A stretch of 38,276 bases of DNA from Gammaproteobacteria bacterium. Lineage in GTDB: Bacteria > Pseudomonadota > Gammaproteobacteria > GCA-001735895. This document shows, in pieces, positions 23,780 to 36,923 of the stretch. The stretch's first letter is position 1, and the number at the start of each line of letters is the position of its first letter. The position numbers and the translations under genes were made by a program. The stretch lies in contig JAAESG010000182.1 in assembly GCA_024229615.1 (NCBI GenBank), positions 1 through 38,276 of the forward strand. The letters run 5' to 3'. The notes below the pieces were generated by a model. The model was given only the letters and a program-made list of their open reading frames with translations, had not been told where the DNA came from and searched no databases.

Positions 23780-25576
23780 ATGGCGTTAGCAATTGGACTG
23801 AACCAGGAGCAATTCACCTTCCGTATGGTCGGCGCCAGTCGGCGCGAAGACCGGATTCGCATCACCGCCGACTGGATCCTGATGCAATTCGACGAATTCT
23901 ACAGTGAATTTCTAAGGGTACCCTACCAGGCCAAGACAGCCTTCGAACAACAACACCACAGCACCTCGATCTGGTTAAGCCGCCATCGCCTGTCGCTGTA
24001 CAGCTCCTACATCCATCGCATGGGTGCCTATTTGCAGGCGATACAACCCAACATCTCGGTCGACGCCAGTTTCCTGAACCAGCTCGAAGAGCATTTTTGG
24101 CGCATGATCGAGCCCCGCTATGAATCCGATGTCGCTTATGCGTTCATGCATTCGATCCGGCGCATGGTGTATCGGGATGAATGGAAACCGGTCGAGTATT
24201 CAACCTTTGGCTTCGCCGAAAGTAGCGACAAGTACCCGGTGGAGCTACTCAGACAATTCCCGGTTGAGGGCCAGGTCAGCCCCGCTCTGATCGAGCAAAT
24301 TCTGAAACTGATACCGGAGTTCGCGCAGCAGTATCGCGATATTTCCGGCGATAGCGCGGCCATTACCTGGCGCATCAATCGACTCGCCGGGAGGCGCGGT
24401 GCAAACATCGAAACCCTGGAAATGATTGATGCCGGGTTCTATCGCAACCGCGGTGCCTATCTGGTCGGCAAAATCAAGTTCGACAATAACAGCTATGCAC
24501 CGCTGATTATGGCCTTGCTCAACAGTTCCGGAGGTATCTATTGCGACGCCGTCATCCTCGACCAGCATCTTGCTCACAACCTGTTCAGTTCGACGCTGGC
24601 AAATTTTCATGTCACGACCAGCTATTACCACGAACTGAGCGCCTATTTACACAGCCTGATGCCGCACAGAGCGCTGGGTCTGAACTATTCAACCATCGGC
24701 TATAATCACGTCGGCAAAGTCGCGGTCATCAATGAACTCAAGCATGAGGTCGCAACCACCGGTGGCGTGCTCGATACCGCGATTGGTGAAGCCGGCACGG
24801 TCGCAATAGGCTTCGCCGGGCCGCAATCGGCCTATAACCTGAAAGTGATTCGCAATCACCCGACCAAGGGCTACAAATGGGGTGAGTTCGAGGGCATAGA
24901 TTCGGTCAAGGAAAAATACAGCCGCGTGCACGAAATCAATCGCACCGGCAGCATGCTGGACAATATCATCTACTTCAATATCGCGCTCGAACGCAATTTG
25001 TTTGCCGAAAGCCTGCTCGAAGAGTTGCTGCAGGAGGCCAGCGAAACCGTCACCCTGCAACGCGACATGATCGTCTTCAAATACCTGATCGTACAGCCAC
25101 GCATGACGCCGTTGCCGGTGTTCCTCGAAAACGCCGCAGAGAGAGAGGTGCGCATCGTCATCGAGAGTCTGGGCGATTGCATCAAGAACAATGCAGCCGC
25201 GAATATTTTCAACAAAGACCTCGACGCACGCAATTACGGTGTGAGTCATTTTCTCAAGGTATACCTGTACGACTACGATGCGCTCGAAGTGATGGTCGAC
25301 GTCAAGATTCGCAGTAACACCGATCGCTTCGACGGTGAGGAAGATATCCCGGACTGGTATTTCGAGGATGGTGTTATCTTCCTGCCCGAAGAAATTGAGG
25401 CCGGATTGTGTATTCGCGACCGTGAGCAACGACAGATTTTTCGTGAGATGCACGGTGATTTGTTACGCACCCAGTACTGGGAAGAACTACAAACGGAGCT
25501 GAGCCAGGACCTGGTGCCGGCGATCAAGGTTTATCCCGATACCTGTAAACTGCAGCGAGCCGGACAGGGCGAATAG
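23780..25576 (+). CDS. aceK: Isocitrate dehydrogenase kinase/phosphatase
   Basis: 598-residue bifunctional enzyme (E. coli AceK is 578) that phosphorylates and dephosphorylates isocitrate dehydrogenase, steering isocitrate to the TCA cycle or the glyoxylate shunt. The N-terminal regulatory half opens RITADWILMQFDEFYSEF. The kinase half shows GFAGPQSAYNLKVIRNHPTKGYKWGEF with the ATP-contacting lysine, VHEINRTGSMLD, and a catalytic segment AANIFNKDLDARNYGVSHFLKVYLYDYDA. Both activities share this site. In enteric bacteria aceK is the last gene of aceBAK; here aceB/aceA are absent and the only malate synthase visible is glcB, 21 kb away. It lies 21 bp after the FAH-family gene. Confidence 0.95.
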   Translation: MALAIGLNQEQFTFRMVGASRREDRIRITADWILMQFDEFYSEFLRVPYQAKTAFEQQHHSTSIWLSRHRLSLYSSYIHRMGAYLQAIQPNISVDASFLNQLEEHFWRMIEPRYESDVAYAFMHSIRRMVYRDEWKPVEYSTFGFAESSDKYPVELLRQFPVEGQVSPALIEQILKLIPEFAQQYRDISGDSAAITWRINRLAGRRGANIETLEMIDAGFYRNRGAYLVGKIKFDNNSYAPLIMALLNSSGGIYCDAVILDQHLAHNLFSSTLANFHVTTSYYHELSAYLHSLMPHRALGLNYSTIGYNHVGKVAVINELKHEVATTGGVLDTAIGEAGTVAIGFAGPQSAYNLKVIRNHPTKGYKWGEFEGIDSVKEKYSRVHEINRTGSMLDNIIYFNIALERNLFAESLLEELLQEASETVTLQRDMIVFKYLIVQPRMTPLPVFLENAAEREVRIVIESLGDCIKNNAAANIFNKDLDARNYGVSHFLKVYLYDYDALEVMVDVKIRSNTDRFDGEEDIPDWYFEDGVIFLPEEIEAGLCIRDREQRQIFREMHGDLLRTQYWEELQTELSQDLVPAIKVYPDTCKLQRAGQGE

Positions 25577-25588
25577 GCGCTGAATTCT

Positions 25589-26005
25589 ATGGGCGACGAA
25601 GCAATCCATACTTTTTATTCAAGCAAACCCCGCGTTATACACATGGCGCTTAACATCGCCCTATCACCGATTTTACTATACCTGCTGGGTGCCTGGGCAT
25701 GGCCCCCAGGCCTGCCGCATTACATCGTCTTCGGGCTCACCGTTTTGATGGCGCTGCAATACACGCGCACACGCTGGCGTGCACCCCGCCTGGTGCTCGA
25801 TGAAACCGGGCTGTACTGCGGCGCTTTCTATGCTGCTGAAAACATCTACCGGGCCGAAGGTACGATACGCTCGGTGAGGCTGTGGATGCTCAAGGACGGC
25901 AAGGTCAAGGAAAAGATCATCAGCCTCGGCTGGGCCAGTCGCGATGACTGCCGTGCAATTCAGCAGTTACTGGTCGATCGCTTTCAACGCGAAATTCCGG
26001 AGTAG
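25589..26005 (+). CDS. Small membrane protein of unknown function
   Basis: 138-residue protein I do not recognise. Two hydrophobic helices occupy about residues 20-36 (LNIALSPILLYLLGAWAW) and 44-58 (HYIVFGLTVLMALQYT), separated by a short loop. The soluble C-terminal part (LVLDETGLYCGAFY, then SVRLWMLKDGKVKEKIISLGWA) looks like the beta-strand and final-helix pattern of bacterial PH-like/YcxB-type domains, but this is only a resemblance. It starts 12 bp after aceK and is probably co-transcribed. A nested inverted repeat begins 48 bp after its stop. Confidence 0.7.
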   Translation: MGDEAIHTFYSSKPRVIHMALNIALSPILLYLLGAWAWPPGLPHYIVFGLTVLMALQYTRTRWRAPRLVLDETGLYCGAFYAAENIYRAEGTIRSVRLWMLKDGKVKEKIISLGWASRDDCRAIQQLLVDRFQREIPE

Positions 26006-26052
26006 CAACTGATTAAAGCCTCAGAGTTGGCATCCGGGGGAGACAATACAAC

Positions 26053-26180
26053 GCTACCTCGGCAGCAAGCTCTCAAAAGTCGCTCCCAACCGCCGCTAGC
26101 GGCGGTTGGTCCATCCCTGGAATCGCTTGGAGCTCGGCTCCTGCCTCGCTACACTTTTGAGAGCTTGCTGTCGAGGTAGC
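26053..26180. repeat. Nested inverted repeat (128-nt cruciform-like element)
   Basis: Outer arms of 27 bp at 26053-26079 and 26154-26180 differ at one position (a G-U pair on one strand). A second, perfect 24-bp palindrome (26086-26109) stands inside: CCAACCGCCGCT and its complement AGCGGCGGTTGG. The whole element folds into a long outer stem holding a tight inner hairpin. No T-run follows, so it is not a simple terminator. It may be a REP/MITE-type element or a structured RNA. It fills most of the 318-bp gap between 26006 and 26323 together with the terminator at 26232. Confidence 0.8.
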
Positions 26181-26231
26181 TTTCATAGAATTAGTAGGCC
26201 CACTTCCTCTGGACTTAACATAGATAATCGT

Positions 26232-26268
26232 AAAAAAATCCCCGGTCAGAGGGCTAAACTGACCAGGG
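26232..26268 (-). terminator. Rho-independent terminator of the choice-of-anchor gene
   Basis: On the minus strand the stem CCCTGGTCAG / CTGACCGGGG (10 pairs, one G-U; 9-nt loop) is followed by ATTTTTTTA. It lies 56 bp after the stop of the minus-strand gene at 26324-27100. Confidence 0.85.
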
Positions 26269-26323
26269 ATGACGCCCTCCTCGGGCAATGGCGCTTACGC
26301 GCCGGGGGGAAAAGGATCGCAGC

Positions 26324-27100
26324 TCAGAGAAGTCTGTTGTTATTATTTTTATCGCTTTTATTACAGGGGGATAACGCGAGGGCTCCCCTGGCTGCGATCA
26401 CCACCTGGATGATCAGGAAAAACATGAGCAGCAAACCCATACTGCCAGCGTGGGCTGAGATATGGCCATGGTCATGGTAAGGCTCGTCCCATGCCCGATC
26501 CTCGATGAGGATATCCCTGCCGAGATAGTGGTAGTCGAGTACTTCGCTGGTCACCATGTAGGCATGATCGAGGCTATAGATTTCGACCAGCACCGCGTAG
26601 TAACCCGGCTCATAACCCTCGAGTAACTCGGTCTCGACTTCGTAGGCATCGCCTGTGTCGTCGATGTGAATCGAAAACAGATCGGTAGTGTAATATTGAC
26701 TCCAGGGTCCACCTTCACGGCTCAGGTACAACTTGGCATATACCGTCGCACTGTCATTGCTGACATCGACATCGAAATAAACATTGATCGCATGATGATA
26801 TCCATCACCGTCAAGATCCGAGACCATTGCTACATCGGCATCATAAATCTCGAAGATCTGATCGTGTCGATTCGCGATGCCGTCGAAATTCTGCGCCGCT
26901 GTGGAAGCCGCGTAATTTTCCGACTGAGTGGGATTGGGCTTGCTCAGCACTTCACGCTGCTGCAACAATTGCGACAGATCAATGTTCTGATCCAGCTTCA
27001 ACTTGCCGGCCGAGCGGCTGGACTGCGTTTCTGCAGCGACCGCGGGCAGATTGAAACCCAGCATTGCCAGCGAGATTAAAATGATTCCGAGAGTCTTCAT
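26324..27100 (-). CDS. Exported protein with C-terminal anchor (choice-of-anchor H-like)
   Basis: 258 residues. A signal peptide covers about residues 1-23 (MKTLGIILISLAMLGFNLPAVAA). The mature part carries an acidic DLDGDGYHH motif, which resembles a calcium-binding loop, and a beta-rich domain (FDVDVSNDSATVYAKLYLS, then YYTTDLFSIHID). Near the C-terminus GSMGLLLMFFLIIQVVIAARG is a hydrophobic helix followed by basic residues, preceded by a short His-rich stretch HDHGHISAH. This layout resembles proteins annotated as choice-of-anchor H, but I am not certain of the family. It starts 9 bp after the His-rich gene, so both form one transcript ended by the terminator at 26232. The function is unknown. 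Confidence 0.7.
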   Translation of the reverse strand: MKTLGIILISLAMLGFNLPAVAAETQSSRSAGKLKLDQNIDLSQLLQQREVLSKPNPTQSENYAASTAAQNFDGIANRHDQIFEIYDADVAMVSDLDGDGYHHAINVYFDVDVSNDSATVYAKLYLSREGGPWSQYYTTDLFSIHIDDTGDAYEVETELLEGYEPGYYAVLVEIYSLDHAYMVTSEVLDYHYLGRDILIEDRAWDEPYHDHGHISAHAGSMGLLLMFFLIIQVVIAARGALALSPCNKSDKNNNNRLL

Positions 27101-35858: not shown

Positions 35859-36706
35859 ATGAAACGGATCTACCAGTTCTGCTTCGCAACAGGTGTCGCG
35901 GCGTTACTGGCAAGTTGCAGCATGATCGATTTTGCCTACGACAACGCCCCCGCTTACGTCGCCGGGGAATTCGACGAAGCCTTCGATCTAAACGACTCGC
36001 AACGCGATCAGCTTGATTCAAGACTCAAAGATTTTTTTGCCTGGCATCGCAAGGAAGAACTGACACGCTACCAACAAATACTGCAGCGGGCCGCATTGTC
36101 GGCCGCCGATGGCATCGAGTCGGCAGAATTTCTCGCCTTCTATCAAGGGGCTCACCAGGGTTGGCGGCGCGCGCTGGAGAAATTCATCGACGGCCTGGGT
36201 GACCTTGCGATCACGCTGAGTCCCGCGCAAATTGAACACTACCAGGGTTACTATCTCGACGACTCCGGGGAGCAAGAAGACTACCTCGATAAGACCCCGC
36301 AGCAACGTGAAATTTACCGCGTAGAACGCAGTCTTGCTCGCCTGCAAAAATGGTTTGGCCAATTCGACGCCATCCAGCGGGAGAAAATCGCTGCCCGGCT
36401 GGCACAGTTGCCGGATATTTATCAACATTGGTATCGATACCGGCAAGCCCGACAACGCGCCTTGATCGAAGCTCTGGGCGAGACCAGGGAGCCACAGCAG
36501 ATGACACAACGACTCAAAACCGTCTTGCTGGACACCTCGAGCGAATATGCGCGCGCTTTCGAGTCTCATCGCAGGCCTACTGGCAAGCCTATGCCGAGGC
36601 CGTGGAAGACATCAGTGCCTGGCTCACCCGCGCACAAATTCGAAAGGCCGTGGGCAAATTGCAGGGCTACGCCCGCGCGGCCGAGCGCATCTCCACGCAA
36701 GACTAG
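35859..36706 (+). pseudogene. DUF6279-type lipoprotein gene with frameshift
   Basis: A lipoprotein signal peptide with lipobox LASC (Cys at residue 20) opens the frame. A helical, Gln/Arg-rich body follows, as in proteins annotated DUF6279. The frame runs well to SSEYARAFESHR at 36572. Beyond this the sensible continuation (AYWQAYAEAVEDISAWLTRAQIRK...AERISTQD) is in the next frame and ends at the TAG at 36704-36706. One missing base in a GCC at about 36572 (CATCGCAGG, expected CATCGCCAGG) explains it: either a real mutation or a sequencing error. Repaired, the protein would have 282 residues. The unrepaired frame runs on to 36911 through the MITE-like element. The stop codon overlaps the left end of that element. 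Function unknown. Confidence 0.7.
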
Positions 36707-36923
36707 CCCGCATTTCTCACCACCCTTCTACTGCGACGACGCTATGCCGCACCCTGCCTGCATTTGGGGCGGTCAGAGCGCTCGATATAGTGTCAACTAT
36801 GCCTGTCGACCCTCCGAGCATTGGTTGCCGGTAACTGCAAGCAATGTTCGCAGTGGTCGCAAAATGCAGGCAGGGCACGACCTCTCGCCGTCTCGCAACG
36901 AGTGGTGGTGAAAAATGCGGGCT
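36705..36923. mobile_element. MITE-like element with terminal and subterminal inverted repeats
   Basis: 219 bp. The 20-bp terminal repeats AGCCCGCATTTCTCACCACC (left) and GGTGGTGAAAAATGCGGGCT (right) match at 19 of 20 positions as reverse complements. Inside, CCCTGCCTGCATTT (36752-36765) and AAATGCAGGCAGGG (36862-36875) form a perfect 14-bp repeat, and further partial pairings lie between. There is no coding capacity. The layout suits a miniature inverted-repeat element or the two joined ends of an insertion sequence after internal deletion. No clear target duplication is visible. The family is not identified; IS1380-type ends come to mind but I cannot confirm. Confidence 0.75.

What the first reader, a model, noticed from the sequence alone, without database searches (positions are those of the whole stretch)
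26053..26180. Nested inverted repeat: 27-bp outer stem around a 24-bp palindrome
The outer arms match at 26 of 27 bases and the single change keeps a G-U pair on one strand, hinting at selection on RNA structure. A GC-rich perfect palindrome sits in the loop. It lies between a plus-strand gene end and a minus-strand terminator, and has no T-run.
Basis: seen in the sequence. Interest (0 to 1): 0.5.

Follow-up and report, generated by a model that had tools for sequence, protein, structure and literature searches.

The report
Dispersed RNA repeat with CsrA-like hairpins
The hairpin is one copy of a many-copy structured element, absent from the RNA family library searched, whose small loops look like those bound by the bacterial regulator CsrA; related elements lie near gene ends in many Gammaproteobacteria.

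Summary
The nested inverted repeat is real (arms 26053-26079/26154-26180, 26 of 27 paired; perfect palindrome 26086-26109) and is not single-copy. It belongs to "family A", a ~137-nt structured repeat: 11 of 31 genomes of the genus hold matches of 100 bits or more, some in tens. Outer-stem sequence differs between copies but stays paired (96.2% of cells in 27 copies; 32 of 49 pairs changed on both sides; 0 of 500 shuffles). Orthologous copies compensate in place. Remaining mismatches are mostly G-U on one strand, the window MINUS strand (70 against 18). There the small hairpins read C-[A(N)GGAX]-G; 61 of 102 copies fold with two such loops, usually 26 nt apart. That matches the published high-affinity Csr/Rsm site. 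Sister families C and D often lie beside other A copies, not the window's. C passes Rfam's cut-off for TwoAYGGAY, already proposed to bind CsrA; a D-like model hits 60 of 274 class genomes. Most A copies lie between convergent genes, close after a stop codon. Best reading: a dispersed RNA module for a CsrA-type dimer. CsrA binding, transcription and mode of spread are inferred or unknown.

The parts
26050..26183 (-). whole family-A element; the strand with A(N)GGA loops (inferred RNA strand) is the window minus strand
   Evidence: arms; R1 match 26049-26185 at 145.4 bits (this copy is in the model's alignment); strand
26154..26180 (-). P1 outer stem, 5' arm in the RNA sense
   Evidence: covarying helix 1
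26053..26079 (-). P1 outer stem, 3' arm in the RNA sense
   Evidence: covarying helix 1
26131..26150 (-). HP3: GGA-loop hairpin by homology; in this copy GGC-AGGA-GCC (26136-26145), a short variant that RNAfold pairs differently
   Evidence: helices 4 and 5
26110..26121 (-). HP2: GGA-loop hairpin, sense TCCAGGGATGGA, loop AGGGAT closed by C-G
   Evidence: helix 3
26086..26109 (-). HP1: the 24-bp palindrome; sense loop CTAG here, CTTG the commonest in the family (49 loops GCTTGC)
   Evidence: helix 2
26231..26287 (-). neighbouring T-run hairpin that looks like the intrinsic terminator of the minus ORF 26324-27100 (not part of the element)
   Evidence: sub-threshold Rfam alignments that end in the T-run; the simple scan did not list it

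Best explanation
Family A is a dispersed, largely vertically kept RNA element read from the window minus strand. A long outer stem (P1), of copy-specific but complementary sequence, clamps a junction that presents two short hairpins with A(N)GGAX loops on C-G closing pairs, most often 26 nt apart, plus a third hairpin with a CUUG-type loop. This is the geometry expected of a binding module for one CsrA/RsmA homodimer, so the most likely action is Csr binding by read-through 3'-UTR or intergenic transcripts, either titrating CsrA or acting on the transcript that carries the module. Shown: copies, architecture, covariation, strand bias, loop motif and spacing, position near gene ends, relation to TwoAYGGAY. 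Inferred: transcription, CsrA binding, and whether it works as a decoy or in cis. Unknown: how copies spread.
For: Copies with one architecture. Covariation: 27 copies, 96.2% of cells paired, 32 of 49 pairs changed on both sides, 0 of 500 shuffles, slid structures 32-47%. 96 distinct copies, 2582 P1 pairs, 124 not Watson-Crick; G-U on the GGA strand 70 against 18; D 25:0 (11 of the 25 at one position) and C 12:0 over two stems; 38 D-like copies outside the genus 40:8; the bias has the same direction whichever way the nearest gene points, 24:11 and 15:2. Orthologs: 22 of 35 possible comparisons, 143 changed pairs, 98 compensated doubles. Loops in A: ATGGAT 86, AGGGAT 23, CAGGACG 15; spacing 26 nt in 56 of 61; GGA loops on the opposite strand in 21 of 102 copies. 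The closing C-G pair of both hairpins is kept in 27 of 27; 26 of 26 and 24 of 26 in the D-like alignment. Published high-affinity site: ANGGAX hexaloop directly on a stem, N missing in some RsmZ loops, C-G closing pair in RsmZ (passages of PMC4005645). Sister family C passes Rfam TwoAYGGAY, 54.2 bits against 43, and TwoAYGGAY was proposed to bind CsrA (passages of PMC4333381). CsrA matches in 27 of 31 genus genomes, 26 over the cut-off.
Against: No expression data; no sigma-70-like promoter in 25900-26500. The GGA strand is antisense to the nearest gene 3' end in 55 of 68 A copies within 80 nt, so transcription must come from the farther gene or an unseen promoter, and in the window a terminator-like hairpin lies in between. 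In single-sequence folds 61 of 102 A copies show two GGA loops, 25 one and 16 none; of 21 D copies only 4 show two. The window copy has an atypical HP3 and a C-A mismatch in P1. The penultimate stem pair is not the U-A described for RsmZ in most A copies. A reaches RF01731 only below threshold (36-37 bits for two A copies), and the window copy not at E 10. 11 of the 13 genus genomes without an R1 match have CsrA, so A is not needed for Csr function.
Confidence: 0.55

Rival explanations
1. A structural 3'-end element without CsrA: the strong stem stops exonucleases or blocks convergent read-through and antisense transcription, as proposed for REP/BIME sequences (recalled), and the GGA loops serve another binder or stability.
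For: 49 of 82 placed A copies lie between convergent genes (background 114 of 665 junctions), 2 between divergent ones (background 104 of 665); median about 34 nt to the stop of a gene pointing at the element on the other strand.
Against: Does not explain conserved A(N)GGA loops with a kept C-G closing pair, the common 26-nt spacing, or similar loops in three different architectures. No T-run follows P1 (window copy).
Confidence: 0.25
2. A DNA-level mobile hairpin (MITE- or REP-like), moved by a transposase that recognises the folded single strand; paired arms are kept by hairpin repair or by transposition.
For: Dispersed, none to tens of copies within one genus, presence/absence at the window locus, copies that look chimeric and one collapse between inverted copies (by eye).
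Against: Arm correction at DNA level predicts no G-U/A-C asymmetry, yet it is 70:18, 25:0, 12:0, 40:8. 48 of 101 distinct copies fall in orthologous groups and compensate in place. Y1 transposases are not enriched where A is richest: 0-2 per genome in G002, G007, G009, G019, G020, G030, as in some genomes without A (G001, G021 none), while others without A have 8-9. No clean empty site found; target duplications were not tested. Other transposase families were not searched.
Confidence: 0.15
3. An integron attC-like recombination site.
For: Imperfect palindrome with conserved folded core and variable outer sequence.
Against: Neither GTTRRRY nor RYYYAAC occurs on the plus strand of 26040-26195, which also excludes each motif on the other strand because the two are reverse complements. 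Copies listed are scattered over many contigs.
Confidence: 0.02
4. Chance palindrome.
For: None.
Against: 0 of 200 shuffles, other copies, covariation.
Confidence: 0.01

Closest known systems
TwoAYGGAY RNA (Rfam RF01731)
   Same: Two hairpins with A-Y-GGA-Y loops inside a poorly conserved outer stem; the neighbouring family C passes its cut-off; proposed to bind CsrA (PMC4333381, passages).
   Different: Family A has a third, CUUG-type hairpin and another core; two A copies reach 36-37 bits (cut-off 43), the window copy nothing. Many-copy dispersal and a place at gene ends are not mentioned in the passages seen.
CsrB/CsrC/RsmX/Y/Z sponge RNAs
   Same: Several A(N)GGA hairpin loops on one strand.
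   Different: Those are one or a few discrete sRNA genes with promoter and terminator (recalled); here one dual-site module per copy, tens of copies, no promoter seen (window copy only).
REP/BIME and other bacterial interspersed palindromes
   Same: Dispersed, palindromic, at gene 3' ends, mostly between convergent genes.
   Different: Outer stem sequence is free but covarying; multi-hairpin core; no enrichment of Y1 transposases.
Integron attC sites
   Same: Folded strand, variable outer part.
   Different: No R'/R'' core motifs.

Membership tests
TwoAYGGAY (RF01731) | covariance-model score at or above 43 bits | tested here: not met
   No match for the window at gathering nor in 25900-26350 up to E 10; two other A copies 36-37 bits; sister family C met it, 54.2 bits
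TwoAYGGAY (RF01731) | two hairpins with AYGGAY-type loops | tested here: inconclusive
   61 of 102 A copies fold with two GGA loops; N is mostly T but also G or absent, so looser than Y; the window copy has AGGGAT and a short AGGA that RNAfold does not form
Csr/Rsm high-affinity sites | ANGGAX hexaloop (or N missing) on a stem with C-G closing pair | tested here: met
   family level: against PMC4005645 passages; window copy: met for HP2, not clearly for HP3
Csr/Rsm high-affinity sites | binds CsrA/RsmA protein | not testable with these tools
   needs a binding assay
CsrB/RsmZ-type sRNA gene | own promoter and terminator | tested here: not met
   no sigma-70-like promoter in 25900-26500 and no T-run after P1 in the window copy; consensus scan only
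REP / RAYT system | association with a Y1 (TnpA-REP) transposase | tested here: not met
   PF01797 counts are 0-2 in the A-rich genomes and higher in several without A
Integron attC | GTTRRRY / RYYYAAC core sites | tested here: not met

The most novel reading that the evidence does not exclude
Gammaproteobacteria carry a large, unrecognised superfamily of dispersed RNA modules (A, C/TwoAYGGAY, D and relatives), each built to hold one CsrA-type dimer, scattered at gene ends in up to tens of copies per genome. They would form a distributed Csr sponge or a 3'-UTR Csr regulon, in one lineage paired with a divergent second CsrA that lost R6 but kept R44.
Probability: 0.3. Interest if true: 0.85.

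Novelty: new variant of a known kind. Interest (0 to 1): 0.62.

Why it matters
CsrA is thought to be controlled mainly by a few sponge RNAs (recalled). Tens of dual-site modules per genome at gene ends would change its RNA budget and make TwoAYGGAY, listed in 2010 and still called a family of unknown function in 2014, testable. The elements are also a striking natural case of stem sequence drifting widely while pairing is kept, at the same locus in related species.

Tried and rejected
Rfam gathering scan of the window: no hit. Rfam search of 25900-26350 up to E 10: only the neighbouring terminator-like hairpin. Single-copy reading: rejected. Plasmids: no match for one D core or for the window's A core. 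Family A outside the genus: R1 hit 12 of 274 class genomes including the own one; the other 11 peak at 69 bits and the best locus of each, read, looks D-like. A clean empty site: none among held loci; L128 (G020) lacks one of two A copies that L077 holds, but flanks do not align up to the edge. At the window locus five genomes keep the convergent gene pair, without an A copy in the sequence printed (L168 G019, only in part; L169 G020; L170 G002; L171 G006; L181 G030), with other palindromes in several of the gaps by eye; G026 (L176) has an A copy after the same gene with a different outer stem. Link to a second CsrA: the GCTNHQS-type paralog is in G002, G007, G009, G020 and G030, and looks degenerate in G019 and G025, all A-rich genomes; but these may be one clade, and G000, G017, G022 and G026 have A without it (G022 has no CsrA match and is 66% complete); not counted as proof. 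Literature: eight answered searches; their listings (one search showed 12 of 40, 5 of 7) held no paper that I recognised as describing these repeats. PMC2267715, on stem-loop sequence families of bacterial genomes, was seen in the listing only and could overlap. Papers opened, all by passages: PMC4333381, PMC2864571, PMC11701678 (one table line), PMC4066749, PMC4005645.

Caveats on counts; 18 of 31 genomes match R1 at E 0.001, but 7 of them (G003, G004, G008, G015, G016, G023, G028) only weakly (at most about 74 bits), and the three that I read (G003, G016, G023) look D-like or unclear; match numbers per genome also include some matches to both strands of one element, so they are upper bounds. 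For G020 I fetched 31 distinct places. A1 holds 27 of the 30 copies delimited; L004 (insert), L025 (cut by contig end) and L014 (near-copy of L012) were left out. In one search, 14 of 110 distinct copies were dropped (arms not found or under 75% paired). In one search, 16 of 102 were at locus edges and 4 overlapped a called ORF. In one search, 61 copies entered the orientation split, and 22 of 35 possible ortholog comparisons were used (the rest lacked usable arms); comparisons share copies and are not independent. Gene calls are from my own simple ORF caller. Class-wide searches score at most 11 and 13 candidates per genome. R2's outer stem is poorly aligned.

Full report
WHAT IS THERE. The reported structure is present: 26 of 27 outer pairs and a perfect 24-bp palindrome, with fold z-scores of -10.3 and -9.2. 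It is one of two long inverted repeats that my scan lists in the window. Two further small hairpins lie between palindrome and right arm.

A REPEAT FAMILY. The own genome holds further copies (C457, C217 and, shorter, C104; one search adds C301 at 86.6 bits). A DNA search hit 11 of 57 relatives, all in the genus. A covariance model from 27 copies (R1) hits 18 of 31 genomes of the genus at E 0.001; 11 of these have matches of 100 bits or more, the other 7 only weaker, partly D-like ones; match numbers reach 53 (some matches are both strands of one element). In a sample of 274 class genomes family A proper was not seen outside the genus (stricter filters). Named records with the core are 61 stretches of uncultured Gammaproteobacteria MAGs, one titled Pseudomonadales. 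A 152-155-nt variant carries an extra small hairpin, and a ~15-nt module (CCGATGCGTCGGACC or its complement) recurs in copies of families A, C and D.

COVARIATION. On 27 copies 96.2% of cells pair, against 83.2% in shuffles and at most 46.5% in slid structures; 32 of 49 pairs have changes on both sides, 0 of 500 shuffles. In 96 distinct copies, of positions 6-27 of the outer stem 20 use all four Watson-Crick pairs and 2 use three; positions 1-5 hardly vary. 48 of 101 distinct copies fall into 21 groups that are orthologous by both flanks. 22 of 35 possible comparisons gave 98 compensated doubles, 18 singles that leave G-U on the GGA strand, 14 other singles and 13 imperfect doubles. So stems drift in place while pairing is mostly kept.

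STRAND. Remaining mismatches are mostly A-C on the model (window plus) strand, that is G-U on the minus strand, 70 to 18, with 36 others. Families C and D show 12:0 and 25:0 G-U on the strand that carries their GGA loops; 11 of D's 25 are at one position. 38 D-like elements outside the genus give 40:8. Splitting 61 A copies by direction of the nearest gene keeps the direction of the bias (24:11; 15:2), against a transcription-linked mutation bias. This favours selection on a single-stranded nucleic acid of that strand, most simply RNA; folded single-stranded DNA is not excluded.

LOOPS. On that strand the hairpins read C-[ATGGAT]-G, C-[AGGGAT]-G or C-[AGGAC]-G. In single-sequence folds 61 of 102 A copies show two GGA loops (spacing 26 nt in 56), 25 one, 16 none; all 15 C copies show two (28 nt in 12); of 21 D copies 4 show two and 15 one, although the second D hairpin is conserved in the alignment. 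The C-G closing pairs of both A hairpins are kept in 27 of 27. Duss et al. 2014 define the high-affinity Csr/Rsm site as an ANGGAX hexaloop directly on a stem, with N missing in some RsmZ loops and a C-G closing pair; their penultimate pair, mostly U-A, is not typical here (PMC4005645, passages). Kulkarni et al. name A(N)GGA as the consensus (PMC4066749, passages). The window copy has AGGGAT in HP2 and a short AGGA loop in HP3; RNAfold pairs its HP3 region differently.

RELATIVES. In 21 loci that I chose and printed, 7 A copies have a C and 8 a D element within 340 nt downstream on the model strand, one has a second A, 5 have none, the window copy among them (not a random sample). C's inner part is Rfam TwoAYGGAY (L154, 54.2 bits, cut-off 43); 12 of 31 genus genomes hold matches over the cut-off. 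TwoAYGGAY was listed in 2010 as probably an RNA and probably not cis-regulatory (PMC2864571, passages) and proposed to bind CsrA in 2014 (PMC4333381, passages). D had no Rfam match at gathering in the loci and stays below the TwoAYGGAY cut-off (up to 42.2 bits). A D-like model (R2) hits 60 of 274 class genomes in 53 of 221 genera, many at the limit of 13 scored candidates, some weakly, and 20 of 31 genus genomes.

PLACE. Of 82 placed A copies 49 lie between convergent genes (background 114 of 665 junctions) and 2 between divergent ones (background 104). Where the nearest gene 3' end is within 80 nt, the GGA strand is antisense to that gene in 55 of 68 A, 9 of 9 C and 18 of 19 D copies; outside the genus 26 of 34 D-like copies with a called gene end lie within 80 nt, 16 of the 26 antisense. 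In the window the plus genes are aceK (23780-25576, Pfam) and then an ORF without Pfam match (25589-26005). Transcription of the GGA strand would come from the farther convergent gene or an unknown promoter.

HOW IT LIKELY WORKS. Shown: a conserved RNA-like architecture under selection for pairing on one strand, with Csr-type loops that are often paired. Inferred: that CsrA or its divergent paralog binds them. That paralog (62 aa, Pfam CsrA 47.1 bits, R6 replaced, R44 kept; the role of R6 and most of that of R44 are recalled, R44 contacts also) is found in A-rich genomes, possibly by shared descent only. Whether the module titrates CsrA or acts on its own transcript is open. Its mode of spread is unknown; Y1 transposases do not track it.

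Noticed in passing
window 36705-36923: A second long inverted repeat, ~220 bp with AGCCCGCATTTCTCACCACC arms: a MITE-like repeat with 77 BLAST pieces in the own genome (full or partial copies, some places counted on both strands); a related hairpin sits inside an A copy (L004, by eye).
   Followed up: partly
L202:6833-7018 (-), also L203, L204, L206, L208: A divergent second CsrA (MLVLGCTNHQS...) in A-rich genomes, and a tandem two-domain CsrA-like ORF in L209 and L212.
   Followed up: partly
L168, L169, L170, L171 after the gene orthologous to 25589-26005: The same intergenic gap holds other palindromic repeats (GTCATTCC...GGAATCC type, like Neisseria dRS3 as recalled) where family A is absent (by eye).
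   Followed up: no
L122:6148-6384: Two A copies overlap in inverted orientation and make 75-nt arms; L078/L165 looks like a collapse between two inverted A copies.
   Followed up: partly
L101:1899-2080 (+): 6S RNA gene (Rfam 85.8 bits) on a record that also holds A and D copies about 4 kb away.
   Followed up: no
L245 and L246 (IMG/VR contigs): Two viral-collection contigs hold the D-type core pattern.
   Followed up: no
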